Shown here: one piece after another, positions 12,812-43,425 of the stretch
Layout: every line of letters starts with the position of its first letter
Numbering within the stretch: the first letter of the stretch is position 1
Source: Agathobaculum sp. NTUH-O15-33
GTDB taxonomy: Bacteria > Bacillota > Clostridia > Oscillospirales > Butyricicoccaceae
Length of the DNA: 64,000 nt
Assembly (NCBI RefSeq): GCF_033193315.1
Contig: NZ_CP136187.1
Location: 3,231,501-3,295,500, forward strand
Direction: 5' to 3'
The notes under the pieces: generated by a model
The model's database searches: none
The model's input: only the letters and a program-made list of their open reading frames with translations
What the model was told of the DNA's origin: nothing
Program-made: the position numbers and the translations under genes

Positions 12812-12831
12812 GGGAAGGAGGTTAAAGAGCT

Positions 12832-21828: not shown

Positions 21829-21922
21829 GCGTCGAACCGCGCGAACCGTGGGTACAATTCGGCCCGCAACTGGAACAACAACTCGTCCGGCAATCGGAAC
21901 GTGAACGTCGGTTTCCGCCCCG
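21829..21922 (+). repeat. DGR template repeat (TR)
   Basis: 94 bp aligned without gaps to 23858-23951. The 12 differences are all at TR adenines; the 73 other positions are identical. TR contains ten AAY (Asn) codons in the phase of the target gene and all ten differ in VR. It ends with the G/C-rich block GTCGGTTTCCGCCCCG that is identical in VR. In the same phase TR reads NVGFRPAL at its end, the commonest end of DGR templates. Confidence 0.97.
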
Positions 21923-22143
21923 CCTTGTAGGTTATTACGTCATTCGCGGCTACGGCTTCGAGTGCGTGTCCTTGTTATACTTCAAGGGAGAGGTAATCCT
22001 TCGCCTTGTCTCTGACGGCGTAAAAACAGTGACGAGCGCCCGGCCCGCCCTCTCGTATTGGGAGGCTGGGGGTGAGTCTGCAATGTGGGTAAAAACCCGC
22101 GTCATAGGTGCCAAGCCGTTTCTGAAAAGGAAAGGATGCCACG
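21923..22143 (+). ncRNA. Presumed DGR RNA spacer between TR and RT
   Basis: 221 bp with no convincing gene. In characterised DGRs the RNA downstream of TR folds with the RT and Avd and primes cDNA synthesis; this stretch is of the right size and place. The open frames here run through TR and lack ribosome sites. No structure was computed. Confidence 0.5.
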
Positions 22144-23370: not shown

Positions 23371-25138
23371 CGACTCCGCAGGTGGGAACAGCGGCTACGG
23401 AGACATCCCGCAGATGTCCGGCAGCATGGCGAACTACACCTTCGGAGACACTCCCAGCGCGGACGCGAACAAGCTCCAATGGGTCAAGATCAAGGACGGG
23501 GACAAAACCCTCCTCATTTGCGACCGCGTCATTCTGGTCAGCGTCTCGTGGGATGACTTGAACGGGCAGGGCTATGTCACCGGCAAGACCATCACCATCG
23601 ACGGGACAAAGTACAAGTGCCGCCTCCTCACCGGAGGCAGCAACCGGCGGAATAACGACTGGTATGCCGGAGGAACACCTACCAATAACGAGTGGGACAG
23701 GTTCATCACCCGCGAGGAAGTCATCACCGGACTCCCTGCCCCGGTTTCCTCTGACCTGGACACCAACCTCAACACGACCGATCACAACAGTACCCATAAT
23801 CAGCTTTGGCATTGGGTGGGCGTGTATTCCTGGTGTCAAGAGACCTGGGCGGAGAACGCGTCGTACCGCGCGTACCGTGGGTACTTTTCGGCCCGCCTCT
23901 GGTACTACATCTCGTCCGGCTATCGGTACGTGACCGTCGGTTTCCGCCCCGTCCTTGAAGTCCTGAACACTGACCCTCTGATCTCTGACAGTGACCGCAA
24001 CCTCGGAGATAAGAACCAGGACTTCACGATCGAGTACACCGTCAACGACTCCGACTCCGGCGACGTCTTGACGGCGACGGAGTCGATTGATGGGCGAACG
24101 ACGAAGTCGTTCGCCCCGACGCGAAATTTCAAAAACACGATCACGGTCAACGTCCGCGAACTGTCCCTCGGCCCCCACACGGTCAAGGTCGTCGTCACTG
24201 ACGGACAGGGCGGAACGGCGACTCGGACGTGGACTTTCAACCGCGTCAACTCCGCCCCGACCATCTCCGGCACGGACACCAACCTCGGGGACAAGAACAT
24301 CGGCTTCACCTACAACTACACCGTCAACGACGCGGACGGGGACGCCGTGACGGTCGTCGAGATGCTGAACGACGAAACGCTCCGCACCATCAACAACGCC
24401 CCGAAGGGAGAGCAGCTCTCGGTCTCTATCACCTCGGAAAAGCTCTACGCCCTGGGCCTCAATACGGTCAACAACCTCGTCATCACCGCCACCGATGGGC
24501 AGGGCGGCACAACCTACCGCCGCCTCACCTTTAAGCGGACGAACTCGGCTCCGGCTATCTCTGGGCAGGACGAAGACCTCGGCCAGCAGACGGGCAGCTT
24601 CGCCGAGAAGTACACCGTCACCGACGTCGAGGGCGACAACGTGGTCGTCACCGAGTTCGTCGACGACAAGCAGATCCGCAGCTATCAAGCTACGCTCGGC
24701 CAGGAGGAGACGATCGAGCTCTCCCGTGAGAATTGGCTCGTCCTCGCAAATGGGGATCACCAGCTCCGCGTCGAGGCCGTTGATGGCAACTTCGCGACGA
24801 GTGTGAGGGTCTGGAACTTCTCCAAGAAGGAGACCGTCATCGCCTTCCAGTTCGCGCAGCCGGAGGAGACGGACGCCCGGGCGACGAAGATCCTCATCAC
24901 GCCTACATGGCATATTGAGGGATCGGTCGCCAAGGTCGAAGCGTGTAACAATGCCTTCGACGACTCCCCGGCCTGGGAGGACATCACGGCGCAGGTCGCG
25001 ATCAATCGGGTCTACAACTTCCTCAACGAGTCCAAGACCGCCGAAAAGTGGGGCGTGAATGTCCGCTTCACTATCACGAAGAACGAGGGCTATGAGGAGG
25101 AGGTTTCGATCTCTGGGTTTGGAGGTGCTTACGAATGA
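23282..25138 (+). CDS. DGR target: receptor-binding protein with C-type-lectin-like domain and Ig-like repeats
   Basis: 618 aa. N-terminal domain of about 225 residues starts MAQYLGTVKLGGFYNNGAIL and includes NEWDRFITREEVITGLPAPV and HNQLWHWVGVYSWCQETWAE, then the VR (residues 193-224) ending VGFRPVLEVLN, the end of a formylglycine-enzyme/CLec fold. Three related repeats of about 85 aa follow from residue 226 (SDSDRNLGDK; APTISGTDTNLGDK; APAISGQDEDLGQQ), each with a Y-T-V-x-D-x-D/E core and an xDGxGG-like end, then a C-terminal beta domain. ATG follows GGAAGGAG. Probably the tail tip adhesin whose binding face is rewritten by the DGR. Confidence 0.93.
   Translation: MAQYLGTVKLGGFYNNGAILKRPTKPWRPDDSAGGNSGYGDIPQMSGSMANYTFGDTPSADANKLQWVKIKDGDKTLLICDRVILVSVSWDDLNGQGYVTGKTITIDGTKYKCRLLTGGSNRRNNDWYAGGTPTNNEWDRFITREEVITGLPAPVSSDLDTNLNTTDHNSTHNQLWHWVGVYSWCQETWAENASYRAYRGYFSARLWYYISSGYRYVTVGFRPVLEVLNTDPLISDSDRNLGDKNQDFTIEYTVNDSDSGDVLTATESIDGRTTKSFAPTRNFKNTITVNVRELSLGPHTVKVVVTDGQGGTATRTWTFNRVNSAPTISGTDTNLGDKNIGFTYNYTVNDADGDAVTVVEMLNDETLRTINNAPKGEQLSVSITSEKLYALGLNTVNNLVITATDGQGGTTYRRLTFKRTNSAPAISGQDEDLGQQTGSFAEKYTVTDVEGDNVVVTEFVDDKQIRSYQATLGQEETIELSRENWLVLANGDHQLRVEAVDGNFATSVRVWNFSKKETVIAFQFAQPEETDARATKILITPTWHIEGSVAKVEACNNAFDDSPAWEDITAQVAINRVYNFLNESKTAEKWGVNVRFTITKNEGYEEEVSISGFGGAYE
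23858..23951 (+). repeat. DGR variable repeat (VR)
   Basis: 94-bp copy of the template inside the target gene. Asn codons of the template have become Tyr (six), Phe, Leu, Ile and Thr. The last 16 bases are unchanged and are the likely site where homing starts. It sits about one third of the way into the gene rather than at its 3' end. Confidence 0.97.
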
Positions 25139-27673: not shown

Positions 27674-27766
27674 CTGTTGCAAAGCGAAGAATGCTACCAA
27701 TTTTGTCATTCTGAACGAAGTGAAGAATGACATTTGGGTATTCTTCTGTTTGCAACAGGTTTTTTA
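27674..27766. terminator. Nested inverted repeat and terminator between convergent genes
   Basis: Outer arms CTGTTGCAAA (27674-27683) and TTTGCAACAG (27749-27758) followed by a T run; inner arms TGTCATTCT (27704-27712) and AGAATGACA (27724-27732). It serves both the kinase and the facing regulator gene. The TCATTCTGAAC core resembles short palindromes dispersed in many Clostridia genomes. Confidence 0.75.
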
Positions 27767-27777
27767 CAGCTCCTTTG

Positions 27778-28488
27778 CTATTCTGTTTCCACATAAGCGA
27801 GCCAGCGTTTTTGCGCCTCCGGATACTCCCGCATCGCTACGGGCACGGTGCCGCCGCTGCGGAGCAAAAAACAGTATTTCCGAATGCCGTTCACATACGC
27901 CAGATTGACCACAAAGCTGCGGTGACAGCGGTAAAAACACTCCCCCGGCAGCCGCTCTAGCGCCGCCGACAAACTGCCCGCGCAAGATACGCGGTCCACG
28001 CCGCAGTGCACGACCAGCTCACGCCGGAAAACTTCGATAAAGGAAATATTCCGCAGGGGAAAAGCCGCTTTGCCGCCCTCCATCGCGTCCAGCGTCAGCG
28101 TGGGCACGCGCCAATGCGCTTCCAGACAGCGCCGGAGCACCGGGCGCAGCGCGTCCCGCGTCAGTGGCTTCATCAAATAGCTCACCGGATAGCTCCGGTA
28201 GCCCGCAAGCGCGTATTCCGGGCTTGCGGTGATGAAAACAAGATCGGTCTCGTCCCCCGCCTCGCGCAGCGCATCGGCCAACTCAATACCGTCCTGTTCA
28301 TCCATCATGATGTCCAGCAGGATCAGGTCCCAGCTCCCGCCTAGCCGCTTTGCGCGCAGCAGCTCCCGCGCCGCGTGAAAGCGGTCGACCGCGCATTCGA
28401 CCCGCTCCTCCTTCAGGAGCGATACCGCCAGCCCCGTCATCTGCTCCAAATCCCGCTCCACATCATCACAAATCGCCACCCGATACAC
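27778..28488 (-). CDS. LytTR-family response regulator
   Basis: 236 aa from GTG (28486-28488) preceded by GGGGG; ATG at 28509 is an alternative with a weaker site. Receiver domain: VAICDDVERD with the acidic pair, LILLDIMMDEQDG with the phosphoacceptor Asp, VFITAS and SYLMKPL (Lys). C-terminal LytTR DNA-binding domain: FPLRNISFIEVFRRELVVHC and CFYRCHRSFVVNLAYVNGI. It probably takes phosphate from the facing kinase. An extended -10 (TGCTATATT) lies upstream near 28520. Confidence 0.88.
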   Translation of the reverse strand: MYRVAICDDVERDLEQMTGLAVSLLKEERVECAVDRFHAARELLRAKRLGGSWDLILLDIMMDEQDGIELADALREAGDETDLVFITASPEYALAGYRSYPVSYLMKPLTRDALRPVLRRCLEAHWRVPTLTLDAMEGGKAAFPLRNISFIEVFRRELVVHCGVDRVSCAGSLSAALERLPGECFYRCHRSFVVNLAYVNGIRKYCFLLRSGGTVPVAMREYPEAQKRWLAYVETE

Positions 28489-28638
28489 CCTCGCACCCCC
28501 GCCGCTCATAAATCTGTACCCAATATAGCACATTCGGCGTTTTTTGTATAGGGGACAGTCGTACTCCCTATATACACGCATAGCAAAAACACCTGAGCCC
28601 TTTACAATCACCCAGATGTCTGTTTTCCTTTGTATCCG

Positions 28639-29610
28639 TTAAGCTACGGCTACGATCTTCTCGTATTCATATTTCACGGTTCTTGGTGACAGCTCCGCGT
28701 AAATCAGCGTTGTTTTGGGATCTGTATGCCCCAGCAGACGCTGGATCACCGCCAGATCCATACCGCCATTGATCGCATTACTCGCAAAGGTATGGCGCAT
28801 TAAATGCGGATGCACCCTACGCGGTTCTTTTGCCCGCTCTCCGATCTTCTGCATCGCTTTTTGCACCGCCCGCGCTTTCATTGGGCCATATGGCGTTCGT
28901 GAACTGGCAAACAGAGCATCTCCACCCTTCCGCTTATTTAAGTACTCCTGCAGCATTAGCTTTGCGCGCACGGAAAAATAAACGATCCGCTCCTTGTTCC
29001 CCTTGCCGAGCACCGTAACACTGCGGCCCTGCCAATCGATCTGATCTAACTTGATCCGCACGATTTCTCCCAAACGGCAGCCGCTTGATACCAAAAACTC
29101 TAACAACGCTTTTTCTTTATAGGTGCGGCAGCCATCTCGCAGCTTTTCCAGTTCTTCCGGTGTCAGCGGCATACGCGTCTTTTTACGGTCTAATTTGAAG
29201 GATTTTATTTTACGCATGGGATTTTTCTTAATAATATCTTCAACATCCAGCCATGAAAAAAAGGATCGCAGCGTGGTCAGATGGGTCTGAATGCTGCTGT
29301 TTTTCAGCTTTCGCTCATCAGATAAGTAGCCCACGTAGCTTCTGATATCATCGCTATTGATTTGCGCAACATGCTTATCCACCTGCTTTGCAAAGCACAT
29401 AAGCATTTCCTTATAATTTTTCAACGTTTTAGGCGATAATCCGTCAATCCTCTTTGCCGATAGAAATGATAAAATTCGTTTTTTCAAGTTGCTCCGTCGG
29501 TGATCCGTTTCCCGTTGAATAACAAACCCATCCATTACCGATTCAATTTGTTCCGCATTAGCACAAAAAACAGCACACAATCTTTCTTTCAGCTCCATTT
29601 TTGCATCCAT
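28639..29610 (-). CDS. Tyrosine recombinase, probable shufflon (multiple inversion) recombinase
   Basis: 323 aa from ATG 29610 behind AAGGAGGTG. N-terminal SAM-like core-binding domain (GLSPKTLKNYKEMLMCFAKQ; LTTLRSFFSWLDVED). Catalytic domain with the Arg in SGCRLGEIVRI, Lys in LGKGNKERIVYF, H-x-x-R in HPHLMRHTFA, LLGHTDPKTT and the nucleophilic Tyr in LIYAEL. It is XerC/D-like in length. Its promoter side abuts a recombination site and the stack of alternative fibre ends, so inversion of these cassettes is the likely job rather than prophage integration. A TATAAT box lies at 29633-29638 on the minus strand. Confidence 0.88.
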   Translation of the reverse strand: MDAKMELKERLCAVFCANAEQIESVMDGFVIQRETDHRRSNLKKRILSFLSAKRIDGLSPKTLKNYKEMLMCFAKQVDKHVAQINSDDIRSYVGYLSDERKLKNSSIQTHLTTLRSFFSWLDVEDIIKKNPMRKIKSFKLDRKKTRMPLTPEELEKLRDGCRTYKEKALLEFLVSSGCRLGEIVRIKLDQIDWQGRSVTVLGKGNKERIVYFSVRAKLMLQEYLNKRKGGDALFASSRTPYGPMKARAVQKAMQKIGERAKEPRRVHPHLMRHTFASNAINGGMDLAVIQRLLGHTDPKTTLIYAELSPRTVKYEYEKIVAVA

Positions 29611-29664
29611 ATCGAACACCTCCTTACCGCCATTATATCATGGCGGCAAAGAGATGTCGGTTCG

Positions 29665-29683
29665 CCTTAGGCGAATAAGGTGG
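29665..29683 (+). repeat. Shufflon site 1
   Basis: CCTTAGGCGAATAAGGTGG. Inverted arms CCTTA/TAAGG flank a 6-base centre GGCGAA, a tyrosine-recombinase site layout. It precedes silent cassette D on the plus strand. In the fibre phase TAG lies directly before GCG-AAT-AAG. Confidence 0.85.
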
Positions 29684-30264
29684 ACTCCGTTGTCCATAAT
29701 GTCGCGTCAAAAGCTGAATTACATACGCTTGCTGCAACCACGCACGAAATTGCTTTTTTTACAGATTGGAGCGATGCAACCCCAGAAACATATGGTTCAG
29801 GTATCATCGTCGGTGGGCTTGATAGTAGCGACGCGCGCATCTTCTATCGAGGATATACTAAATTTTATACAGGTTATTTCAGGGCGAATATGCCCGAAAT
29901 CGTATGGACAGAATACGCCACCGCCACCCCTCCCGCCGTGTACGATTTGCCGCTGGCGGCGGGATTTACTGCTTATGTTCCATGCCAATATTGGAAAACG
30001 CAAGAAGGCGAAGTGAAAACATGTTGTCGAATTAGGTTTTATAATGGTATAGCGTCACCAATCCGCCTCTTCTCTTTACCCGAAGGCTATCGCCCCCGCA
30101 ATCCGATGTCTGTGTTAACCAAAGTTGACGTAAACGGAATGCAATATTTTGCGCATGTAGATTTAGGTCAAAATGGCGATGCAACAATGTATATGGCTAC
30201 AAACGATTCGCTTGGGGGCGAAGGAATTATAACTATGGATCAATTTGTGTTTGTAGCAGCTTAG
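29674..30264 (+). CDS. Silent fibre C-terminal cassette D
   Basis: About 197 codons from the site (Asn-Lys-Val) to TAG at 30262-30264. It has no ribosome site or start of its own. Begins DSVVHNVASKAELHTLAATT; the middle carries ATPPAVYDLPLAAG shared with the three other cassettes; the end is LPEGYRPRNP then a beta region and FVFVAA. Inversion between site 1 and site 4 would join it in frame to the expressed fibre N-terminus. Confidence 0.85.
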   Translation, partial: NKVDSVVHNVASKAELHTLAATTHEIAFFTDWSDATPETYGSGIIVGGLDSSDARIFYRGYTKFYTGYFRANMPEIVWTEYATATPPAVYDLPLAAGFTAYVPCQYWKTQEGEVKTCCRIRFYNGIASPIRLFSLPEGYRPRNPMSVLTKVDVNGMQYFAHVDLGQNGDATMYMATNDSLGGEGIITMDQFVFVAA

Positions 30265-30272
30265 AGCTCTAA
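30261..30272. repeat. Palindrome joining convergent cassettes D and C
   Basis: TTAGAGCTCTAA, a perfect 12-bp palindrome that supplies the stop codon TAG to both facing cassettes. The same 12 bases occur at 31654-31665 between cassettes B and A. Confidence 0.9.
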
Positions 30273-30889
30273 GCTGCCATAAAGTTAATTTGAGTACAGT
30301 ACAAGACCAATACTGTTTGCGATCCGTTATAATTATCTAACCACAGTTTAATAGCACCATCACCACCAACATCTACATGTCCCACTCCGTGGCTGTAGTC
30401 AGAAAAGATAACTGCGCATACAGCATGTCGGCTTTTTGCTGGACGGTATCCCTCCGGGAGTGTTGCAAGTGTCATGCCAGACGTTGGAGCAACGGTCGAT
30501 CTCAGCGTAAATTCAACAAAAACTTCTTTAAACTGATTTTTCCTGTATTCACTCGCGCTCCATTGGTCAGCTACGCTCCACCCCGCCGCCAGCGGCAGAT
30601 CGTACACGGCGGGAGGGGTGGCGGTGGCAAGTGGTTTCCAACCTTTCCAAATCCCAGACTCCGTGCTGTTAATCCACATGATTGATGTATATGTATCTAT
30701 TAGCCGAAGCGTCCAAGCAGATGTAGCTATATTTACTTCTAGCGTACCTGCGTACCACCGTTGTGAAATAGGCGTTCCGGTAGCGTCAGGAGGCACCGAG
30801 AACGAACACCCGATGTTTTTGCTGACAGCCCAATCCAAGAGGTTGGAACCATCAACGAGGATTAATCCCGCGCTGTTTTCCACCTTATT
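30269..30889 (-). CDS. Silent fibre C-terminal cassette C
   Basis: About 206 codons on the minus strand from Asn-Lys-Val of site 2 to TAG. Starts ENSAGLILVDGSNLLDWAV; contains ATPPAVYDLPLAAGWSVAD and LPEGYRPAKS; ends INFMAA. It lies between cassette D and the AT-rich spacer and has no ribosome site. Two successive inversions would be needed to express it. Confidence 0.85.
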   Translation of the reverse strand, partial: NKVENSAGLILVDGSNLLDWAVSKNIGCSFSVPPDATGTPISQRWYAGTLEVNIATSAWTLRLIDTYTSIMWINSTESGIWKGWKPLATATPPAVYDLPLAAGWSVADQWSASEYRKNQFKEVFVEFTLRSTVAPTSGMTLATLPEGYRPAKSRHAVCAVIFSDYSHGVGHVDVGGDGAIKLWLDNYNGSQTVLVLYCTQINFMAA

Positions 30890-30898
30890 CGCCAAAGG
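30880..30898 (-). repeat. Shufflon site 2
   Basis: On the minus strand CCTTTGGCGAATAAGGTGG; one base from sites 1 and 3, with the same centre GGCGAA. Precedes cassette C. Confidence 0.85.
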
Positions 30899-31060
30899 CG
30901 AATATTTTTAGGCGTAGATATATTTTAACGCTTTTGGGTATTATCTAAAACACATCAATTTTAATTACTGCTATAGCCTCTTTAATTATAGGATTGCTAA
31001 AACCATGTATAATTGCTCATTTATGCAATTATATGCAATAATCTTTTAGCGGTTAGTACA
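30899..31060. other. AT-rich spacer between sites 2 and 3
   Basis: 162 bp, much richer in A/T than anything around it, without a gene. It separates the two back-to-back cassettes C and B. It may mark the position where cassette pairs were duplicated, or bind an accessory protein; neither can be shown here. Confidence 0.5.
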
Positions 31061-31079
31061 CCTTAGGCGAATAAGGTGG
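31061..31079 (+). repeat. Shufflon site 3
   Basis: CCTTAGGCGAATAAGGTGG, identical to site 1, on the plus strand before cassette B. The extended arms CACCTTA/TAAGGTG are perfect here (from 31059). Confidence 0.85.
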
Positions 31080-31657
31080 CCTACATAGCCCCAGAAGAGG
31101 CTGATTTACAAAAACCAAATTATCCAACCGCCTATATTGGTGATATTGATGAATCAGCAATGATGCCTAACTCGGATTGGCATCACGTGTTGCATATGCC
31201 GCACAGATATCCGGCGGTGGGTTACAGCGCTCTTATGGCGCTATCGTTCGGCTTGCAGCCAAGGCTTTCTATTCGGGGGGCCTATTCTGGCGAATGGGGC
31301 GATTGGATACCTATTGCCACCGCCACCAAACCCGCCGTGTACGATCTGCCGCTGGCGGCAGGAATAACCGCCACAGATGCCGGGTGCAAATATTTTAAGA
31401 CGCAAGATCATGTCTGTACCATAGCTGTTGACTGCGTGATGCCTAACAACGGATTGACAAGCGAGGATGTCATTTTTACATTGCCAGAGGGCTATCGACC
31501 AGCACAATATATCATAATTCCAGCGATTGCTGTAACGACAGATGGCGGTACATACTGCGCATCATTACGAATTTGGGAAAATGGGATCGCAAAGATATGG
31601 ATGCCTGTAGTACACGCTAATCAGTTCATTGCGCACGCCAGTTTTATTGCGTCTTAG
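31070..31657 (+). CDS. Silent fibre C-terminal cassette B
   Basis: About 195 codons from Asn-Lys-Val to TAG 31655-31657. Starts AYIAPEEADLQKPNYPTAYI; contains ATKPAVYDLPLAAGITATD and LPEGYRPAQY; ends HASFIAS. It faces the expressed cassette A tail to tail, so one inversion between sites 3 and 4 exchanges them. Confidence 0.85.
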   Translation, partial: NKVAYIAPEEADLQKPNYPTAYIGDIDESAMMPNSDWHHVLHMPHRYPAVGYSALMALSFGLQPRLSIRGAYSGEWGDWIPIATATKPAVYDLPLAAGITATDAGCKYFKTQDHVCTIAVDCVMPNNGLTSEDVIFTLPEGYRPAQYIIIPAIAVTTDGGTYCASLRIWENGIAKIWMPVVHANQFIAHASFIAS

Positions 31658-31665
31658 AGCTCTAA
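31654..31665. repeat. Palindrome joining convergent cassettes B and A
   Basis: TTAGAGCTCTAA again, giving stop codons to both directions. Conservation of all 12 bases at the two junctions suggests a common origin of the cassette pairs. Confidence 0.9.
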
Positions 31666-32567
31666 GCAGAAGGAAGGACAATCCCGCCCAAAAAGTATGC
31701 GCTGGTGATTGCTACCCGTATTTCAATAACCCCGTTTTTAAACACTTTAATATAGGGATCGTTTGAACCTCCTCCCCATGCGACATCACGACGCGGTCTA
31801 AAACCTTCTGGAAGTGTTGCGATAGTGTAAAATCCCGGATCAATGGTCGTGTTTTCTCCTTTCCAGATGTTCGCTGTTACGTACACAAATCCCTCCTGCG
31901 TCTTATAATATTCAGCCGAGTGATCTGGATAAACGCTCCACCCTGCCGCCAGTGGCAGATCATACACGGCGGGTTTGATGGCGGTGGCTTGCAGTACCCA
32001 CTGCGTATAGCCTGTGGCATAATAACTTGTACGTTTTAGCGTCAGCCCAGCATTTTCGGCGGGATATGTACATGTGATTGTTTGCACGATGCTTGGCGTG
32101 TTGTAGTTCGTGTATGTAGGCGCATCTACAGTTAGTGTAAAAAGCGCATTCGTGCCGCATCCAAACGCATTGTCTGTGTCTATCCATGTATATGCTCCCG
32201 GAGCTATATCATCGTTAATATTGGCTATAACACCGCCGTCCACAGGCATCTTATTCGCCAAAGCCGCACCAAGCGCGTCGACTTCCTCCATGGAATGCGT
32301 ATGTTGCAGTCCAGCGAACACTTTACCTAGCGCTGTTTTGACACCGGTCCACGACAGCCGCTTTTTTATACCATTTGCCGTGCTGTCCGTTAGAATCAGG
32401 CTATCCGAATCCGCAGGGCTTTCTTTTTCTCCACTCGGTGAAAGTTGTTGTGCGTGTTCCTCTAACGCGGTATCCACCGCATCCCAGTTATCGTTCTGCA
32501 CACCAATATCGTAAAAATCATCTATACCCGGCTTAATCAAGCCATAATTATCTGTTGTCGTTGCCAT
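31662..32567 (-). CDS. Tail fibre protein with shufflon-exchanged C-terminus (expressed form A)
   Basis: 301 aa. Constant N-terminus (about 105 residues) begins MATTTDNYGLIKPGIDDFYD and contains NWDAVDTALEEHAQQ, the usual baseplate-attachment end of clostridial contractile tail fibres. Site 4 falls at LGAALANKMP. The variable part (about 195 residues) carries ATAIKPAVYDLPLAAGWSV and LPEGFRPRRD and ends LGGIVLPSA. It follows the XkdU-like gene by one base pair and is the last gene of the tail operon, hence the likely receptor-binding protein. Confidence 0.88.
   Translation of the reverse strand: MATTTDNYGLIKPGIDDFYDIGVQNDNWDAVDTALEEHAQQLSPSGEKESPADSDSLILTDSTANGIKKRLSWTGVKTALGKVFAGLQHTHSMEEVDALGAALANKMPVDGGVIANINDDIAPGAYTWIDTDNAFGCGTNALFTLTVDAPTYTNYNTPSIVQTITCTYPAENAGLTLKRTSYYATGYTQWVLQATAIKPAVYDLPLAAGWSVYPDHSAEYYKTQEGFVYVTANIWKGENTTIDPGFYTIATLPEGFRPRRDVAWGGGSNDPYIKVFKNGVIEIRVAITSAYFLGGIVLPSA
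32246..32264 (-). repeat. Shufflon site 4 (inside the expressed fibre gene)
   Basis: On the minus strand GCTTTGGCGAATAAGATGC; the centre GGCGAA is conserved and the arms are less perfect than in sites 1-3. In frame it encodes Leu-Ala-Asn-Lys-Met. Confidence 0.82.
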
Positions 32568-32568
32568 A

Positions 32569-33112
32569 TCAGGGTAAAACCTCCTCTCTCAGCTGCGCGT
32601 TCGTATAATTCGCGAGCTGACTGTGCGTAAATTTCGTAATTGTTTGATGTTGATTATATTTGAGCATACATACAGTATCCATATTTGCCGGAACGATCTG
32701 CTTCAGCAAATCGCCGACTGCCTGAAAATTGTTTTTTGCCGTCAAAGCGACCTTGACAAGAAGATGATACGCCGAGTTATCCAACTCCACATCATATCCG
32801 TCCGTGCCGCAAAGCGTTTCCAACTGTCGCTTCCAGCATGCGTACTGTATACGGTAGTTGGGCGTTGATTTTAGATAGCACGCGAAAGCGACGCTCCTCC
32901 AACGTTTCTGTATCCTTTGGCACGATCTTGTATATTTTTTCATAGCGTTCTACTGCCTGCTCAGGCGCGGTGTGAATAAACTGTGCATCCAACACCTCGT
33001 CCGCACAGGCAAACAGGGCATCTAACTCGGGATCCTCCACACTACAAAGCAGCTGAAAAGCCTGCGTTTGCAATAAAATCGGCGGTAAATAGAGCGAAAG
33101 TTCCTTTCTCAT
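32569..33112 (-). CDS. xkdU: XkdU-like tail protein (DUF2313), frameshifted
   Basis: N-terminal reading: MRKELSLYLPPILLQTQAFQ, EERRFRVLSKINAQLPYTVR; after a shift near 32831-32836 the other frame continues RQLETLCGTDGYDVELDNSA to LREEVLP. Together about 180 aa, the normal size of XkdU. It sits between XkdT and the fibre gene as in PBSX. Likely adaptor between baseplate and fibre. The break is a single site and may be a sequence error. Confidence 0.75.
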
Positions 33113-34191
33113 ACAACCACCTCAATTTTCTTAAGCGACGGAATGTGGTCAGTTGTGATCTGCACATTTTTTGTTTGACCGTTCAGCGCCGTATCCGCAA
33201 TATCCAGCACGCAGGAAAGCGCTAAAATTCGGGTCTCGATTTGCGCAATTCGGATGACTGTTGCATCCGCATCGGCCCATGCGGCGGCAAGCTCGGCAAA
33301 ATAATCCCTCACAGCCAACTCGACCTGCTCCCGCGCGTCCTCCCATCTCCAGCCGTCAATAAAGGTAAGGCGTGTTGTGATAGACACGGGTTCGTCTTTG
33401 ACGCCCGCTACCGTTACGGAGTGCCCGATCGGCGCCAGCCCCAACCCTTCCCCTTGGTTTGCCTGTGGATCAATCTCCTGCTGTACCGCCGCAATTAGCT
33501 CCTCGGATGGCACCGTATAATCAGAGGATATAACCGTTAACTTTACCGTTCCGCCGCCGTTCCACACCGGGTAAACCTTGACACCGCCAACACCGTGCAG
33601 GGCATTAACCGTTTCCTTGTAGTCGGCCACATTGCCGCCAAATGATTCACCATCGATAGAAGCATAATAGCGCTCGCGCAGCGTCTCTGTCGTATCTCCA
33701 TTCTCGCCGGGGATAAGCACGCCCTTGATTTCAGCGCTTTGCAGTCCGTTCACGGACTGAATCGGGATCAGTGTGCCCGTATATTGGTTCCCTTCTGTAC
33801 CCGGCGTTTCTGATTCCAGCCGATACAAGCCGGGCGACATTTTTTCCTTTACTGCGTAATTTACTGCGCCGCAGCGAAAGCGTGTGCCCACCTGTAATTC
33901 GAGCATAACCGGTCTGGTCTCCGCTTGGATGATTGCAGCCGTTTCACCTAGAACGGGCACGCCGCGCTCCTTGCAGCGCAGTATCAAATATTGCAGCGAC
34001 GCTGTATCGACAAAAGTCTCGTCCATCACCACATCCAGTTCCATGTACGTCTTCGCCAACTCGGCGGCAGCCGGCGCCAGCGCGTCGTAAATAACCGATC
34101 CCTCACGCTTATCGACAGAATTCGGCACCCGTGCGAGCATTCGTTTTAGGATCACGTCAAACGTCATCCGGTCCGCATATCTTCCGATCAC
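33109..34191 (-). CDS. xkdT: Baseplate J-like protein XkdT
   Basis: 360 aa. MTFDVILKRMLARVPNSVDK, EGSVIYDALAPAAAELAKTY and GENGDTTETLRERYYASIDG are the signature of XkdT/baseplate J. Wedge component of contractile tails. ATGA-type overlaps with XkdS upstream and XkdU downstream. Confidence 0.92.
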   Translation of the reverse strand: MIGRYADRMTFDVILKRMLARVPNSVDKREGSVIYDALAPAAAELAKTYMELDVVMDETFVDTASLQYLILRCKERGVPVLGETAAIIQAETRPVMLELQVGTRFRCGAVNYAVKEKMSPGLYRLESETPGTEGNQYTGTLIPIQSVNGLQSAEIKGVLIPGENGDTTETLRERYYASIDGESFGGNVADYKETVNALHGVGGVKVYPVWNGGGTVKLTVISSDYTVPSEELIAAVQQEIDPQANQGEGLGLAPIGHSVTVAGVKDEPVSITTRLTFIDGWRWEDAREQVELAVRDYFAELAAAWADADATVIRIAQIETRILALSCVLDIADTALNGQTKNVQITTDHIPSLKKIEVVV

Positions 34192-34607
34192 GCCGCTTCA
34201 CCTCCCCAATTCAGCTCTGATGGGACATCGCCTTGCGTGGTGTGCACGATAAAGCTCGTCCGTAGTTCGTCCCGCCCGGCTCGCACACAGGTAAAACCGG
34301 TCACTTGCAAAATTCGATCGTCCTGTAACAGAGCCTCCTCTACTACGTGCTGCAAGCGCGCCTGCAAGTACGGCGTTATGCCTTGACCGAACAGGCTCCG
34401 CAGCTCGATGCCATAATTCCATGAATAGATGGCATAGGTGAACCGCTCGGTGTTCAGCGCCAGAAGGATCGCCTGTCGCATCGCCTCCACTCCGTCAATC
34501 TTACCGGATGCAGGTGCACCGTCAAAGTCCAGACGATAGGTCTGTGTCGGCTGCTCAGCAATCGTAAAATCACCTTTCAGCCCGTCGTTGAAATCGTTGG
34601 GTAGCAT
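34188..34607 (-). CDS. xkdS: XkdS-like baseplate protein (DUF2634)
   Basis: 139 aa. TYRLDFDGAPASGKIDGVEA, LNTERFTYAIYSWNYGIEL and LLQDDRILQVTGF are typical for DUF2634/XkdS, the gp25-like wedge protein. Overlaps XkdR and XkdT by one to four bases. Confidence 0.9.
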   Translation of the reverse strand: MLPNDFNDGLKGDFTIAEQPTQTYRLDFDGAPASGKIDGVEAMRQAILLALNTERFTYAIYSWNYGIELRSLFGQGITPYLQARLQHVVEEALLQDDRILQVTGFTCVRAGRDELRTSFIVHTTQGDVPSELNWGGEAA

Positions 34608-34870
34608 TATAATCCTCCCTTTTTGTCATAGATCAAATACTGTTGTCCGCCCTGCATACGAAATAAGATCAGCTTGTCACCCACCTTGAACGACTGCGTG
34701 GTCACTCCCTGCCGTACGATAAAAAATTCTTTTTCCAGTACCAGCTTTTGCGATAGCCGTACCGTCAATGGCGCGGTCGACTGCACCGTGCCAAAGCATA
34801 TCTCAACCGGCCTTCGCGCTTCCACCGCGCTTACGGCAATCGTTTTAATCAGTTCAAACAGATCAGGCAT
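34607..34870 (-). CDS. xkdR: XkdR-like protein (DUF2577)
   Basis: 87 aa. IKTIAVSAVEARRPVEICFG, RLSQKLVLEKEFFIVR and VGDKLILFRMQGGQQYLIYD match DUF2577, a short OB-like baseplate protein found between the hub and XkdS in PBSX-type tails; possibly the spike. Confidence 0.88.
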   Translation of the reverse strand: MPDLFELIKTIAVSAVEARRPVEICFGTVQSTAPLTVRLSQKLVLEKEFFIVRQGVTTQSFKVGDKLILFRMQGGQQYLIYDKKGGL

Positions 34871-36716
34871 GGAACTCCCCCCTTATGCCGCTTAGCGTTA
34901 AATCCATCGTGTGCAGCCCAAAGGAAAAAGTATGCCGTGCTTTTTCGATGCACATGTAGTTCGAGATATTGATGTCCCCCAGCCCCATGCCGACCGCGAC
35001 TGATGCCCCCGCGCGGGCACGCACGTCGCCGAATACCTTTTTGATCGACAGCTCGCGCTGCTTCACGTTATAGTAATCCAAAAGCACCTTTGCCTTTGTT
35101 TGCATATCCGCCGATGAAAGAGCGCTGTCCAGCTTCGCATAATATTGCAGCACGCCCCATCGGCCTTGTGAAGCTGTATCGTTCGTTACATATATCTCGC
35201 GCTCGCCTGTTTCTCCGTTGTCATAGGCCAGCTTAACACGATCATAAACCTCGTTGTCAATAGAAGATGCATAGCTGTATTCCTGTGCGGTATTCTGATC
35301 AATCCAGATGGGCAACAGCATGCTCTCATAGGGTTTCAACATCAACTTTCCAAAGTCATCGTACAACACGTATATTTTCCCGGTGTTTACCAGCGTTTCA
35401 TCTGCGGCGTTTCCACAAATATCGAACAGTGTCGTTTCCTCTATGCGCTGTGGTATCTTATACTTAGTATCCACGATTGTCCCGCAGGTCAAGCCGTAAT
35501 CCTTTGCTAACACTCTAAGCAACTCGCTGTACGTCCAATCCGCATAGGAGATCGAATCTTTGTTTTTGAAATAACGTAGCTGGTCGTAACAGGTCACTTG
35601 GATCAAGCGACTGTCGCTGCGTTCCTTTTTAAACACATATCCGTAAAACACCGGCTCGCCGTTAAAGCGGAACGCTACCGGATTTCCTTCATGAAAGCTT
35701 AGGATATCATCTTTGACAACCGTAAATTTGAGCGAGGCGGGTGAGCCGGTTCTCGTTGTCTCCCAAACGATATCGCCCTCCACCATCGGATTTTGCAGCT
35801 CCATTTTACTGTTTTGCAACAGTAGTTCAGCACCTGCCAACAAATACGGTTCGGCCTTTCGTAAAATCTCCTTGCGCGTGCCCGCCACACCAGTGATCGA
35901 CTTGACCACAACTCTGGTTATCTCTTTGGAGCTTTGTCCCGCATCGATTTCTTCACCGTCGCCGTCTAAGATCGCCGTGCCATATTTGACACCCCAGCGG
36001 TTACATTCCTCGTTCGTGCTCATCAGCAAATCGAAGTGATAGACGCCGTTTTGAATATTGATCGCACCACCCCGGTCATTCACCGTATAGGTCACGCCAT
36101 CTAGCTCGCTGCCGGTCCCCTGCACCGTGATCTTGGTGCCGAAGGGCACGCTCGCCGGCGCCGCGCAGGTCCGCTTGGACGTATCCAGCGGGTTGCCCAG
36201 CGCATCTAGGAAACCGCCTTCCATGGCGTTATTCGCCGGATAATAAGCAGTAAACATGGCCTTGACAACATTTTTTGCGCCGGCACCCGCCTTGCCGGTG
36301 TAGTTGGATACCGTGTCGCTGTCTTTGACGAAATTCAAGGGGTCTCGGGCTACCCCGTTAACCCGAATTTCAAAATGCAGATGACACCCCGACGAAGTTC
36401 CAGTGGTACCAACGAGTGCGATCGTCTGTCCAGCCGATACTTTTGCACCGGCTGAAACCAGACGTTTGCTCGCATGCGCGTAACGCGTCGTAATACCGCC
36501 GCCGTGATCCAGCTCGATCCAGTTTCCGTAACCTTGCTTTTCATAGTCTGAGATACTTACTGTACCATTACCGGCTGCAATGATCGGCACGCCGTCTGCG
36601 GCCGCCAGATCAACGCCCTTATGATAACGGGACGCGCCGGGAGTGGAGATATTACGCGGCCCAAATGGGCTTGAAACATAGCTGTAGCTCGGACACGGCC
36701 AAACGTATTTACCCAT
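34863..36716 (-). CDS. xkdQ: Baseplate hub XkdQ fused to M23 peptidase and 3D domains
   Basis: 617 aa, about twice the usual XkdQ length. Residues 1-130: M23 peptidase (RYHKGVDLAAADGVPIIAAG; GCHLHFEIRVNG) with the His/Asp/HxH zinc ligands. Residues 150-260: 3D domain (MFTAYYP, VPFGTKITVQGTG, YTVNDRGGAI, YHFDLLMSTNEE) as in lytic transglycosylases. Residues 265-617: XkdQ hub (ILRKAEPYLLAGAELLLQNS; PVAFRFNGEPVFYGYVFKKE; YAKLDSALSSADMQTKAKVL). It would form the tail tip and cut peptidoglycan on contraction. The frame is continuous. Confidence 0.88.
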   Translation of the reverse strand: MGKYVWPCPSYSYVSSPFGPRNISTPGASRYHKGVDLAAADGVPIIAAGNGTVSISDYEKQGYGNWIELDHGGGITTRYAHASKRLVSAGAKVSAGQTIALVGTTGTSSGCHLHFEIRVNGVARDPLNFVKDSDTVSNYTGKAGAGAKNVVKAMFTAYYPANNAMEGGFLDALGNPLDTSKRTCAAPASVPFGTKITVQGTGSELDGVTYTVNDRGGAINIQNGVYHFDLLMSTNEECNRWGVKYGTAILDGDGEEIDAGQSSKEITRVVVKSITGVAGTRKEILRKAEPYLLAGAELLLQNSKMELQNPMVEGDIVWETTRTGSPASLKFTVVKDDILSFHEGNPVAFRFNGEPVFYGYVFKKERSDSRLIQVTCYDQLRYFKNKDSISYADWTYSELLRVLAKDYGLTCGTIVDTKYKIPQRIEETTLFDICGNAADETLVNTGKIYVLYDDFGKLMLKPYESMLLPIWIDQNTAQEYSYASSIDNEVYDRVKLAYDNGETGEREIYVTNDTASQGRWGVLQYYAKLDSALSSADMQTKAKVLLDYYNVKQRELSIKKVFGDVRARAGASVAVGMGLGDINISNYMCIEKARHTFSFGLHTMDLTLSGIRGEFHA

Positions 36717-36730
36717 TTGTTATATCCTCC

Positions 36731-37435
36731 TTATCCCGGCAGCATCAAAACGGTGCCGGGATAAATCCAGTGTCCGTTTGATGAACTTGCTAACCCATGT
36801 TTTTTTGCTTCCGCCTCGATCGTGTCTTGATTCAGCCGATATATTTCGCTCATACGCATACCGTCTCCCAGCTTGATACGCGCGATCTCCCAAAGATTGT
36901 CCCCGGGCTGAACAGTGTACACGGGCGCGGAAGGCGCCGTGGTCGTTTCACGCTGCTCAGTCACTTCCGCGACCGTCCCATCCTCAGCCTGCTGAAATTC
37001 CACCCGTGCGGTCTTACAGGCCCGCCATTGCCGGAGATCGATCTTGGCCAGCACATCGGTCCCGTGCCGGTCTGCGTCCTCCAGCAGCTCGTACGCTTCC
37101 AGAGATACCTGCATGGATCTCGCTTCGATCAGCACCGTGCCCCTATCATCCATGCGGATCACTTCAAACATAAACGGCGCACAGCCGGTCTTTAGGTTTT
37201 CCAGCAGGGATAGAAAGTACTGGGCGCTTTGGAAGCCGCTTTGATATTGCGCAAACGAATACTTCCGATTTGGCAGCAGCGCTTCAAAAGAGATTTTGCT
37301 CAGGCCGGGCCGTTTGAGTACGCTCACCTCCCCCTCGTTAATCAAGGTGATCGTGTCGTTCTGATTTGCAACCTTTAGCGTCATGGACGAAGGCGTAACA
37401 GGCAACAGCACGCCGTCCAAAAAGAATTGATACAT
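36731..37435 (-). CDS. xkdP: XkdP-like LysM tail protein
   Basis: 234 aa. N-terminal beta domain (YQFFLDGVLLPVTPSSMTLK; PGLSKISFEALLPNRKY) followed by a Thr/Pro-rich linker and a C-terminal LysM (VYTVQPGDNLWEIARIKLGD to NGHWIYPGTVLMLPG). LysM binds peptidoglycan or packs against the hub. The start overlaps the tape-measure stop. Confidence 0.9.
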   Translation of the reverse strand: MYQFFLDGVLLPVTPSSMTLKVANQNDTITLINEGEVSVLKRPGLSKISFEALLPNRKYSFAQYQSGFQSAQYFLSLLENLKTGCAPFMFEVIRMDDRGTVLIEARSMQVSLEAYELLEDADRHGTDVLAKIDLRQWRACKTARVEFQQAEDGTVAEVTEQRETTTAPSAPVYTVQPGDNLWEIARIKLGDGMRMSEIYRLNQDTIEAEAKKHGLASSSNGHWIYPGTVLMLPG

Positions 37436-39544: not shown

Positions 39545-39609
39545 CGGCAATCCTCCTTCCTAAAAAAACTCCAAGGTAACCGCGCCGCCCCGCAGCGCGG
39601 CGCGGTCCC

Positions 39610-40214
39610 TTACTTCCGCTTTGCCTCCCGTTCCGCTTTGCGCTCAGCCTCGATCCGCAACTCGATAGCGGCGGTGAGGAAGGCCCGCTCGTTTACGGGC
39701 AGGGCAAGGAACTGAGAAGGCAACAGGTGGAGCTTGTGGAGGCAATAGTAAGCAAGGTTCGCATCACTGTCGCCCCCCTCTATTAGTTTTTTGCTTCTTC
39801 CACCTTGTCCGCCATCGAAACGTCAAAGCCGCAGTGCTCCTGCACCTCAGCGGCAAGATCGCCCAGCTCGCCGGGGGTCAGCATGGCGCGCAGGAGCGCT
39901 TCCGCGTCCTTCACCTTGTAGCTGTCCTGCAACGCGGCGTCATTCAGATTGGGGTAGACCACACAGGCCGCGCACAAAGCGGACATATAGCCCGGACCGT
40001 CAAAATCCTGCACATACTGGCCGCGCTTGCCCGCCTTGCCCGGAGCCGGAACGCGTCGCATAAAGGTCTTGCGCAGCGTTTCGTCCTCGTCGTTGGTGAT
40101 CGCGCGGATCTCCCACGGAATGGCCTTGCCGTCCTTTACAAAGCGCTTTGATACCGTTACCTTGCGGTTTTCCACCGGCAAGGCGTTGCCCAGCATAAAT
40201 TCCTGAAAATCCAT
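39610..40214 (-). CDS. xkdN: Tail assembly chaperone XkdN and its -1 frameshift extension
   Basis: Zero-frame product 40214-39783, 143 aa: MDFQEFMLGNALPVENRKVT, VYPNLNDAALQDSYKVKDAE, MLTPGELGDLAAEVQEHCGF, ending VEEAKN. The last sense codons AAA AAC form A AAA AAC, the strongest slippery heptamer. A -1 slip gives a product of about 201 aa with YYCLHKLHLLPSQFLALPVN and a charged end EAERKAEREAKRK, stopping at 39610-39612. This is the G/GT arrangement of tailed phages, placed before the tape measure. Confidence 0.88.
39786..39792 (-). promoter_or_regulatory. Slippery heptamer AAAAAAC for -1 frameshift
   Basis: In the minus strand it is phased as A AAA AAC in the XkdN frame, with the zero-frame TAA immediately after it (39783-39785). 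The -1 frame is open for 58 more codons. Confidence 0.85.
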
Positions 40215-40687
40215 TATCGCATGCCCTCCAGTTCTTCAAAGGTCTCGGGCAGCTCAAACTTGTCGAAGGTGCCCGATAGCTCTTCGTCCAGTAGATTTTC
40301 GCCCGCCGCGAACTTGGCGACCACCACGCTGTCCAGCAGGCAGCCCTTTAGGATGGTCGACTGGCGGCCCACCGCCGCCGAGGGGTCTTCGTTTTCGATC
40401 TGGATTTCAAGCTCCGGCATATAGCCGGTATCCTGATAGGTCTTCATCACCCGGCGCAGCACGGACTGGTTGTAGTGCGCCTTACCGGAAAATTCGCCTG
40501 TGCCCCCCACCGTCTTGTGGCCCTTGTTAACGCGGCCGAGAATGGGCACGTCAACAATGTTTGGCTTATAAGTCGCGCTAAACTCGGTCATTTGTAAAAA
40601 CTTATAGCGGCTGCCGTCGATGGTGACAAAGCAGCTTGCCAGCGAACCGGAGATCGCGTCTCTTGCGTCAAGTACCGTATCGTTCAA
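40214..40687 (-). CDS. xkdM: Tail tube protein XkdM
   Basis: 157 aa. LDARDAISGSLASCFVTIDG, DVPILGRVNKGHKTVGGTGE and FSGKAHYNQSVLRRVMKTYQ are typical for XkdM, the inner tube subunit. It follows the sheath and ends in an overlap with XkdN. Confidence 0.92.
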   Translation of the reverse strand: MNDTVLDARDAISGSLASCFVTIDGSRYKFLQMTEFSATYKPNIVDVPILGRVNKGHKTVGGTGEFSGKAHYNQSVLRRVMKTYQDTGYMPELEIQIENEDPSAAVGRQSTILKGCLLDSVVVAKFAAGENLLDEELSGTFDKFELPETFEELEGMR

Positions 40688-42013: not shown

Positions 42014-42082
42014 TTACTTCACCGTTCCTTTCAAACCATTCCTGTTGTTTTGTTGTTTTTCAATCCGGGTTATGTTTTTCAT
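42014..42082 (-). CDS. Possible 22-residue peptide between XkdJ-like and XkdK genes
   Basis: ATG overlaps the preceding stop (ATGA) and the stop is 2 bases before the sheath ATG. It reads MKNITRIEKQQNNRNGLKGT then two residues. It may only couple translation of the sheath to the upstream gene. Confidence 0.35.
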   Translation of the reverse strand: MKNITRIEKQQNNRNGLKGTVK

Positions 42083-42486
42083 GCTTTCACGTCCTGCGTC
42101 TGGCGAAGCGTGTCCATCGGCTCCGCCTCGCGCGCCGTGCGGACAAAGTGAGAGTAGGCCGCCGTAAAGTAAAGCGCTCCCTCCGTCACCTCCCAGTTCA
42201 TAGCCGCCGCACGCACACCGGGGAGTACGCCAAGCAGGCCGAAAAGCGTTTGCGCCGCTTGTACGCATTCCGCATACGGGCCCATCTCGCCGGGATAGTA
42301 CCGCACCGCGAATTGCTCTTCCAGCAACAGCCGCTCCCCGGGATACGGCTGCGCGCCGCCCTTTATCGGCGCAATGACAAAGCAAGGCTTTGCAAAGCCC
42401 GTTTCCGGCTCCTCGGTGTACAGGCCGCAGCTTTCCGCCGGATAAACCGTGCGGATCGCGTCCGCGATTTTCTGTGTGATGTTCAT
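42079..42486 (-). CDS. XkdJ-region tail protein (DUF6838-like, tail terminator candidate)
   Basis: 135 aa. MNITQKIADAIRTVYPAESC, CFVIAPIKGGAQPYPGERLL and FAVRYYPGEMGPYAECVQAA. Proteins of this type precede the sheath in PBSX-like tails and are thought to cap the tail. GGGAGG lies before ATG. This is the first recognisable gene of the tail operon; 42487-42640 shows no convincing gene. Confidence 0.7.
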   Translation of the reverse strand: MNITQKIADAIRTVYPAESCGLYTEEPETGFAKPCFVIAPIKGGAQPYPGERLLLEEQFAVRYYPGEMGPYAECVQAAQTLFGLLGVLPGVRAAAMNWEVTEGALYFTAAYSHFVRTAREAEPMDTLRQTQDVKA

Positions 42487-42686
42487 TTACCGCCTCCCAA
42501 AACTGCCGCGCATGTTTTCTGTCGGGGATCTTTCCGCGTGTCCCGCCGCCGGCCGGCCTAGGCGGGGCGCGTTCCCCACGGGGCCGTGATCGGCCGCTCG
42601 TTTTCATGGTCATTTTGTTTTTCTCCTCTCTTTTGTCATGCATGTTTACCCTTTCTTTGGCAAACGCTAGGGATGAGGTGATTTTT

Positions 42687-43264: not shown

Positions 43265-43393
43265 TTGACAGGTACGCATAATCGTACTATTATAAGGTTA
43301 TACCAACCGCATGAACGCTATTGCGTACTTTCTGTATTCATGATAGTACTTATTTCAGTACTTGTCAATGCAAAAGAGCGTTTTTCAGTACTT
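43265..43393 (+). promoter_or_regulatory. Promoter and operator repeats of the Xre regulator
   Basis: TTGACA (43265-43270), 17-base spacing, TATTAT (43288-43293) gives a near-consensus sigma-A promoter. Downstream, AGTACTT occurs at 43345-43351, 43357-43363 and 43387-43393, with GTAC cores also inside the promoter spacer. These repeats between promoter and gene look like operators for the Xre protein itself. Confidence 0.65.
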
Positions 43394-43425
43394 TCAGCGT
43401 TGTGCACAAAAAGGAGCATACGTTT

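What the first reader, a model, noticed from the sequence alone, without database searches (positions are those of the whole stretch)
28639..32567. Shufflon that exchanges tail fibre C-termini next to its own tyrosine recombinase
Seen: one expressed fibre gene with a site at its constant/variable border, and three silent cassettes in alternating orientation, each starting with the same site in the same codon phase and ending at a stop. A tyrosine recombinase is adjacent. Known: R64-type shufflons switch pilus adhesin ends this way. Inference: this cluster can make at least four fibre types.
Basis: partly seen in the sequence, partly recalled or inferred. Interest (0 to 1): 0.95.

Follow-up and report, generated by a model that had tools for sequence, protein, structure and literature searches.

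The report
Self-shuffling tail fibre of phage-like element
In a bacterium related to Butyricicoccus faecihominis, a set of phage-tail genes with no recognised head genes carries one open tail-fibre gene and three silent fibre ends, each marked by the same short site, next to a recombinase gene that likely flips them into use, so the tail is predicted to switch the part that would recognise other cells.

Summary
Confirmed: one fibre gene (31662-32567, -) and three silent 3' cassettes carry four sites fitting one 17-base pattern, in alternating orientation and one codon phase, beside an Xer-like tyrosine recombinase with its six catalytic residues. Comparison supports a shufflon. In a same-species genome the flanks and spacer are 97-99% identical, the alignment edges lie at the sites, and all four cassettes differ; the recombinase shows 8 synonymous and 0 non-synonymous changes. 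Relatives with 58%-identical recombinases show natural inversions at equivalent sites, one with a 563-bp block 100% identical but inverted. Beyond the finding: (1) the carrier is a contractile-tail element without recognised head genes (tailocin-like, or a remnant), while a 68% paralogue in the same genome lies in a prophage with head genes; (2) cassettes have two modules split by a conserved linker, the distal one with a predicted phage receptor-binding-head fold, and some are chimeric there (P0004: 98% this strain's expressed N-half, 99% the relative's expressed C-half). Tyrosine-recombinase shufflons of phage receptor-binding proteins are known (Rin), so this is a new variant of a known kind. 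No reads were available; flipping in this strain is inferred.

The parts
28639..29619 (-). Xer-like tyrosine recombinase (326 aa), predicted invertase of the shufflon
   Evidence: PF00589 129 bits; NF040815 224.2 bits against a cut-off of 220; R182 K206 H272 R275 H298 Y307 present; 8 synonymous and 0 non-synonymous changes against L009
29663..29683 (+). recombination site S1, CGCCTTA-GGCGAA-TAAGGTGG
29671..30264 (+). silent cassette C1 (197 aa from Ala-Asn-Lys to the stop); in-frame TAG one codon upstream
29917..29963 (+). linker of C1 (ATATPPAVYDLPLAAG), join of proximal and distal module
   Evidence: (I2)
30259..30274 (.). palindrome GCTTAGAGCTCTAAGC at the ends of C1 and C2
30269..30892 (-). 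silent cassette C2 (207 aa); in-frame TAA six codons upstream
30582..30628 (-). linker of C2, 98% complementary to that of C1 over 47 nt
   Evidence: I2
30880..30900 (-). recombination site S2, CGCCTTT-GGCGAA-TAAGGTGG
30901..31058 (.). spacer between the two invertible segments; 30880-31079 is 98.5% identical and lies in the same sense as the flanks in L009
31059..31079 (+). recombination site S3, CACCTTA-GGCGAA-TAAGGTGG (perfect inverted arms around a 6-bp spacer)
31067..31657 (+). silent cassette C3 (196 aa); in-frame TAG one codon upstream
31316..31362 (+). linker of C3
   Evidence: I4
31653..31666 (.). palindrome CTTAGAGCTCTAAG between C3 and the expressed gene
31662..32567 (-). open tail fibre gene (301 aa); variable part C4 31662-32258, constant part 32259-32567
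   Evidence: first 105 aa 98% identical in L009; weak PHROG tail match, 17.8 bits
31942..31988 (-). linker of C4; the predicted RBP-head-like domain starts here (residue about 195)
32246..32266 (-). recombination site S4 in the open gene, CGGCTTT-GGCGAA-TAAGATGC
32569..33112 (-). tail protein at the YmfQ position (name recalled, by position); two ORFs here, one 180-aa ORF in L009
33109..34191 (-). Baseplate J-like protein
   Evidence: PF04865 158 bits
34188..34607 (-). sheath initiator (gp25-like)
   Evidence: PF10934 80 bits
34863..36716 (-). YQBQ-like tail protein with M23 peptidase domain
   Evidence: PF24032, PF01551
37435..39550 (-). tape measure protein; two overlapping ORFs here, one 661-aa ORF in L072
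   Evidence: PF20155 on 38294-39550
39783..40687 (-). XkdN-like tail assembly chaperone and tail tube
   Evidence: PF08890, PF09393
40701..42011 (-). contractile tail sheath
   Evidence: PF04984 and three further sheath domains
42079..42486 (-). tail terminator, last recognised tail gene of the element
   Evidence: PF20765
43321..44217 (+). HTH-like gene and IrrE-like peptidase gene, possible regulators of the element
   Evidence: HTH by inspection only; PF06114 34.7 bits

Best explanation
It is most likely a shufflon: four copies of one short site divide a tail-fibre locus into one open fibre gene and three silent 3' cassettes, and the adjacent tyrosine recombinase likely inverts DNA between oppositely oriented copies so that another cassette would become the fibre's C-terminus. 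Shown by sequence: the sites, their shared codon phase, the stops that close the silent copies, and the catalytic residues. Shown by comparison: the edges of identity between two same-species genomes lie at the sites, the open position holds different cassettes in them, and homologous loci occur in inverted arrangements. Inferred: that this protein does the recombination, within the GGCGAA spacer between arms CNCCTTA and TAAGGTG, in this strain. Inferred: a second exchange at the linker, probably homologous recombination between cassettes or strains, which swaps only the distal module. Predicted: the product changes which cells a contractile tail-only particle, or its phage ancestor, binds.
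For: Four sites that fit one 17-base pattern. Twelve of 12 cassettes in three loci (window, L009, L013) start Ala-Asn-Lys in phase and are 582-624 nt long. A stop lies 1-17 codons upstream in 9 of 9 silent copies, against 107-149 open codons in 3 of 3 open ones. L009: flanks 97.3% and 98.9%, spacer 98.5%, alignment edges at 29684, 30880/31079 and 32250, each within 4 bases of the cassette-side end of a site; the cassettes align only in short conserved stretches. Recombinase 8 synonymous, 0 non-synonymous. Among 253 pairs of 23 viral loci, 7 pairs share more than 700 nt and 6 of those 7 hold inverted blocks. In L043/L042, 1454 bp (to the end of the stretch compared) are identical in the same sense and 563 bp identical but inverted, with the junctions in GGAAAATAARGCGAAC. 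An inverted pair of AATAAGGYG lies within 5 kb upstream of the recombinase in 10 of 15 loci at 53% identity or more, and in 0 of 21 at 49% or less (one of these has a single copy); background 0.07 per 5 kb. Linker chimeras: W4/P0004 N 98% C 36%, K4/P0004 N 28% C 99%. Distal half predicted to have an RBP-head-like fold.
Against: No reads and no isogenic inverted copy of this exact locus were available. The same-species copy differs in cassette content, not merely in order, so exchange between strains is also needed. C2 and the open site are direct repeats, so deletion would be possible unless something prevents it. The AATAAGGYG motif was read off some of the loci that were then counted; two of the 15 are the window's own kin (L009, L013); 4 of the 15 (L047-L050) lack the motif and L042 has one copy, although L042, L047 and L048 hold under 2 kb upstream. 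One of the 7 comparable pairs (L061/L062) shows no inversion. Concerted evolution of linkers within convergent pairs was tested and not found: mean identity 0.784 within pairs, 0.797 with the other pair.
Confidence: 0.86

Rival explanations
1. The locus is a reservoir of fibre cassettes changed only by homologous recombination between strains or between cassettes; the recombinase is the integrase of a former prophage and the sites are conserved coding sequence.
For: Cassette content differs wholly between two same-species genomes, and chimeras at the linker point to homologous exchange. No other integrase was recognised among the ORFs of the tail-only element that were scanned.
Against: Edges of identity lie at the sites rather than spread over homologous DNA. 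Silent sites carry in-frame stops, so coding does not explain their conservation. Related loci with 58% recombinases are inverted at the equivalent sites, one at 100% identity. Terrisporobacter phage TPELB_ph1 has a separate annotated integrase besides its tail-adjacent relative (41% identity); an integrase-like ORF apart from the relative is also seen by inspection in L038 at 12344-13528.
Confidence: 0.08
2. The shufflon is a fossil: the element is a decaying prophage remnant, two tail genes are split, no lysis genes are recognised, and inversion no longer has an effect. (This can hold together with the best explanation's account of origin.)
For: The tape measure and YmfQ-position genes are split in the window but single ORFs in the relative. 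No holin or endolysin was recognised near the tail genes. Related tail modules in three other genomes lie beside genes that look like head genes by inspection. The sheath has 32 non-synonymous against 61 synonymous changes, so constraint on it is not strict.
Against: Recombinase 8 synonymous to 0 non-synonymous and tube 14 to 1, and uninterrupted copies of the split genes in L009/L072, suggest selection in the species. The splits may be assembly errors or private to this strain.
Confidence: 0.3
3. The inverted cassettes change by phase variation an adhesin unrelated to tails.
For: None beyond the general use of inversion for adhesins (recalled).
Against: The gene lies directly after baseplate and sheath genes, and its distal domain is predicted to match phage receptor-binding heads.
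Confidence: 0.02

Closest known systems
Rin shufflon of Bifidobacterium and Eggerthella lenta prophages (PMC6109161, PMC8778435; passages read)
   Same: Tyrosine recombinase beside a constant receptor-binding-protein gene and several silent 3' parts, with a short crossover site inside the gene
   Different: Rin sites are given as 11 bp (Bifidobacterium) and 8 bp (E. lenta), and the bifidophage variable parts as 95-100 residues; here the site has two arms and a 6-bp spacer, cassettes are about 200 residues in convergent pairs and consist of two modules. Rin sits in prophages with head genes, this in a tail-only element.
R64 shufflon with Rci (recalled, not read)
   Same: Tyrosine recombinase; sites in both orientations at the constant/variable border; conserved right arm and variable left arm
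   Different: R64 changes the pilus tip protein PilV of a plasmid; here it is a tail fibre, and the recombinase is Xer-like (NF040815). No homology to Rci or PilV was tested.
XerA-type recombinases beside hsdS genes of Lactobacillaceae type I restriction loci
   Same: Four of the 8 plasmid hits listed (the four highest; 36-41% identity) are annotated with a neighbouring restriction subunit S; the two opened (H26, H27) lie among whole and short hsdS genes, also two-module specificity genes (recalled)
   Different: The target is a restriction specificity subunit rather than a tail fibre; inversion there is recalled, not tested. A third hit opened (H33) lies beside phage-like genes, not hsdS.
Carotovoricin tail fibre inversion by Ein (Nguyen 2001; seen only as cited in passages of PMC13195805 and PMC12090994)
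   Same: A phage-tail-like bacteriocin whose fibre is switched by DNA inversion
   Different: Ein is a DNA invertase (of the serine type by recall) of Gram-negative bacteria; here it is a tyrosine recombinase, four cassettes and a Clostridia-type host. Tailocin function here is not shown.
Min of p15B and Gin/Cin of phages Mu and P1 (as described in passages of PMC6109161)
   Same: Inversion of tail-fibre C-termini
   Different: Serine recombinases; a different enzyme class by that description

Membership tests
Phage tail-fibre (RBP) shufflon, Rin type | Tyrosine recombinase gene adjacent to the cassettes | tested here: met
   PF00589 and catalytic residues
Phage tail-fibre (RBP) shufflon, Rin type | One full gene and several silent 3' parts sharing a crossover site in both orientations | tested here: met
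Phage tail-fibre (RBP) shufflon, Rin type | Inverted arrangements seen between near-identical copies | tested here: inconclusive
   Met for relatives with 58% recombinases; for this locus only cassette replacement with edges at the sites
Phage tail-fibre (RBP) shufflon, Rin type | Recombinase orthologous to Rin | not tested
   Rin sequences were not fetched
R64/Rci shufflon | Rci-family recombinase and PilV-type pilus adhesin | tested here: inconclusive
   The switched gene follows contractile-tail genes and has no Pfam match at E 0.1; no direct comparison with Rci or PilV was run
Tailocin (phage-tail-like bacteriocin) | Complete contractile tail genes without head or packaging genes | tested here: inconclusive
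   Sheath, tube, chaperone, tape measure, baseplate and terminator found, and no capsid, portal or terminase among 17 ORFs scanned between 31.6 and 46 kb; five further ORFs there were not scanned against families, and two tail genes are split in this strain
Tailocin (phage-tail-like bacteriocin) | Own lysis genes for release | tested here: inconclusive
   No holin or endolysin among the ORFs scanned; short ORFs were inspected only from 41.9 to 46.05 kb
Tailocin (phage-tail-like bacteriocin) | Particles that kill related strains | not testable with these tools
   needs a bench test

The most novel reading that the evidence does not exclude
A self-diversifying tailocin of a gut commensal: a head-less contractile-tail weapon whose fibre is shuffled at two joints. 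An Xer-like recombinase, kin to those beside hsdS genes, swaps neck plus head at the Ala-Asn-Lys site, and recombination at the linker swaps the receptor-binding head alone, so four cassettes can give up to 16 fibres and the killing range changes within one clone.
Probability: 0.27. Interest if true: 0.8.

Novelty: new variant of a known kind. Interest (0 to 1): 0.6.

Why it matters
It ties a set of Xer-like recombinases (53-70% identical members in viral contigs) to a recognisable site in 10 of the 15 closest loci, so that tail-fibre shufflons of this kind could be found by sequence. It suggests that variable ends are built of two exchangeable modules, which multiplies the number of possible fibres. 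If the tail-only element is a working tailocin, a commensal could vary the targets of its own weapon, and killing range could be tested against cassette order.

Tried and rejected
Concerted evolution of linkers within convergent pairs, which would indicate inversion at the linker, was tested and not supported (0.784 against 0.797). In this window pairs C1/C2 and C3/C4 did look closest (98% and 94% over 47 nt), but the other two loci do not follow. By inspection the linker holds no copy of the site, so I do not claim that the recombinase acts there.

Papers: no held paper contains both 'shufflon' and 'tailocin'. The other searches gave the Rin and carotovoricin papers as the nearest that I opened; one search was on the Terrisporobacter phage. 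Five papers were opened, each by passages only. The library lacks most subscription journals.
Full report
What is there. The window is G000:C1:3231501-3295500, a 4.0-Mb one-contig genome; the genome search labels G004 the same species. G004's stretch is letter for letter L009, a contig of Butyricicoccus faecihominis DFI.6.109. The four sites fit one pattern and share a core GGCGAA with a right arm TAAGRTG and a more variable left arm. In S3 the arms are perfect inverted repeats (CACCTTA...TAAGGTG), the usual layout of a tyrosine-recombinase crossover site (general knowledge). Read in frame, the core gives Ala-Asn-Lys in every cassette. The left arm or what lies before it decides silence: S1 and S3 carry TAG in frame, S2 is stopped six codons upstream, and only S4 is open back to the fibre's start. 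Strand exchange in the core would leave the left arms in place, so the open position would stay open whatever cassette arrives. This last step is inference.

Geometry. C1 and C2 converge in one segment, C3 and the expressed end C4 in another, with a spacer of about 160 bp between. Inversions S3/S4 and S1/S4 would bring C3 or C1 into frame; S1/S2 followed by inversion with S4 would bring C2. Four fibres are therefore possible without deletion.

Same-species comparison. Against L009 the flanks 32250-38601 (97.3%) and 27724-29684 (98.9%) and the spacer 30880-31079 (98.5%) align. The cassettes between them match only in short conserved pieces. Each edge lies within 4 bases of the cassette-side end of a site. 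Synonymous and non-synonymous changes (counted by codon): recombinase 8 and 0, fibre constant part 5 and 2, baseplate J 24 and 6, tube 14 and 1, sheath 61 and 32, neighbouring LytTR gene 4 and 6.

A third copy and chimeras. The homologue search with the fibre returned P0003, whose first 106 residues (constant part plus Ala-Asn-Lys) equal the window's, followed by a different variable part. It also returned two cassette-sized proteins without the constant part, P0004 and P0034. The longest contig of all three is 6283 bases; that this is one contig, and that P0004 and P0034 are silent cassettes, is inferred. P0034 is L009's silent cassette K3 (N-half 100%, C-half 99%). P0004 has the N-half of the window's expressed C4 (98%) and the C-half of L009's expressed K4 (99%), with 28% to K4 and 36% to C4 in the other halves. 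D2 of the own-genome paralogue shares its C-half with K1 (72%) and its N-half with K3 (45%) and P0005 (64%). Over 120 pairs of 16 cassettes the medians are 22% (N) and 29% (C). Of the 9 pairs with a half at 45% or more, 8 share one half only, though K3 and P0034 are near duplicates and count twice. Material appears to move between expressed and silent positions, and the two halves move apart. The join is the linker ATATPPAVYDLPLAAG. A within-pair excess of linker identity was looked for and not found, so the process at the linker is left as probable homologous recombination.

Natural inversions in the family. An alignment of four recombinases found 31 loci in viral contigs. Among 253 pairs of 23 of these loci (L041-L063), 7 pairs share more than 700 nt; 6 contain inverted blocks and 1 (L061/L062) does not. 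L042, L043 and L044 (58% recombinases) join three different cassettes to one flank. L043/L042 share 563 bp inverted at 100% beside 1454 bp in the same sense at 100%, the latter up to the end of the stretch compared; their whole same-sense block is 98.5% over 2521 bp. L045 and L046 hold the DNA between two sites in opposite sense (94% over the best block), with only the recombinase-side flank aligned, at 88%. In L043/L044 a small segment of about 145 bp just before the recombinase is itself inverted. The motif AATAAGGYG occurs as an inverted pair in 10 of 15 loci with 53% identity or more and in 0 of 21 at 49% or less. It was derived partly from these loci; L047-L050 lack it and show other inverted repeats. 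More distant recombinases (about 45%) in L038 and L039 also stand near a fibre gene with a convergent second cassette, with sites that I did not determine.

The carrier. From 32.5 to 42.5 kb all recognised genes are contractile-tail genes. Beyond lie an HTH-like and an IrrE-like gene, a gene of unknown function, an HTH repressor gene and, from 46 kb, genes resembling sugar-use genes below NCBI's cut-offs. No capsid, portal or terminase was recognised among the 17 ORFs scanned; ORFs at 32569-33112, 34607-34870, 36731-37435, 42606-42893 and 43321-43782 were not scanned against families. The same stretch aligns at 96-97% in L072 of the relative. Related tail modules in G026, G027 and G003 lie beside further genes that look like head or packaging genes by inspection (not scanned). 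The paralogue in the own genome (recombinase 68%) is in a prophage with TerL, portal, capsid and amidase. So a shufflon of a phage kind sits on an element without recognised head genes. Tailocin and remnant both remain open: whole copies of the two split genes in L009/L072 favour the first; the two splits here and no recognised lysis genes favour the second.

Recombinase family. It exceeds the NF040815 cut-off (224.2 against 220). In plasmids the 8 listed of 4668 matching records include 4, the highest, annotated with a neighbouring hsdS gene; of three opened, two lie in type I restriction loci and one (H33) beside phage-like genes. That such recombinases invert hsdS modules is recalled.

Novelty. 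Rin shufflons (PMC6109161, PMC8778435, passages) already show or predict phage tyrosine invertases acting on receptor-binding proteins. Carotovoricin (cited in PMC13195805, PMC12090994) and xenorhabdicin loci (PMC13280938, passages) show inversion on tailocins. What I did not meet in the searches is the combination here: two-module cassettes with exchange at both joints, this site and recombinase set, and a tail-only carrier.

Noticed in passing
window 21829-25138 (+): A diversity-generating retroelement in the neighbouring phage-like region: template 21829-21922, variable repeat 23858-23951, 94 nt with 12 differences, all at template A; reverse transcriptase 22144-23370; target gene 23282-25138, which PHROGs likens to a Hoc-like head decoration protein. 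Two different diversifying systems thus lie about 3.5 kb apart.
   Followed up: partly
G000:C1:1130000-1149000 (L013): Second shufflon-like locus in the same genome, in a prophage with head genes and a 68% identical recombinase; between its segments lies an extra gene (7948-8547, -) with a hydrophobic stretch and a fibre-like end, by inspection.
   Followed up: partly
L043 8694-8838, L044 2767-2911: A segment of about 145 bp between two site-like sequences just upstream of the recombinase is inverted between near-identical prophages; it could switch the recombinase's own transcription.
   Followed up: no
window 32569-33112 and 37435-39550: Two tail genes are split into overlapping ORFs here but are single ORFs in the same-species genome; window 39215-39541 also finds no alignment in L072. 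Strain-specific damage, divergence or assembly error.
   Followed up: partly
plasmids NZ_CP047413.1, NC_004942.1: Recombinase relatives (36-41%) inside type I restriction loci with whole and short hsdS genes.
   Followed up: partly
L047, L050, L048, L049: Recombinases at 54-55% with inverted blocks in a repeat-rich region (30-base repeats) and no AATAAGGYG site.
   Followed up: no
L022 10964-12145: Another tail locus (Baseplate J 67% identical) with a fibre gene, a convergent fibre-like piece and inverted repeats of a different sequence around them; no recombinase seen in the 12.2 kb held.
   Followed up: no
L084 (Terrisporobacter phage TPELB_ph1): A tail-adjacent integrase, 41% identical to this recombinase, besides a separate integrase; no silent cassettes annotated.
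   Followed up: no
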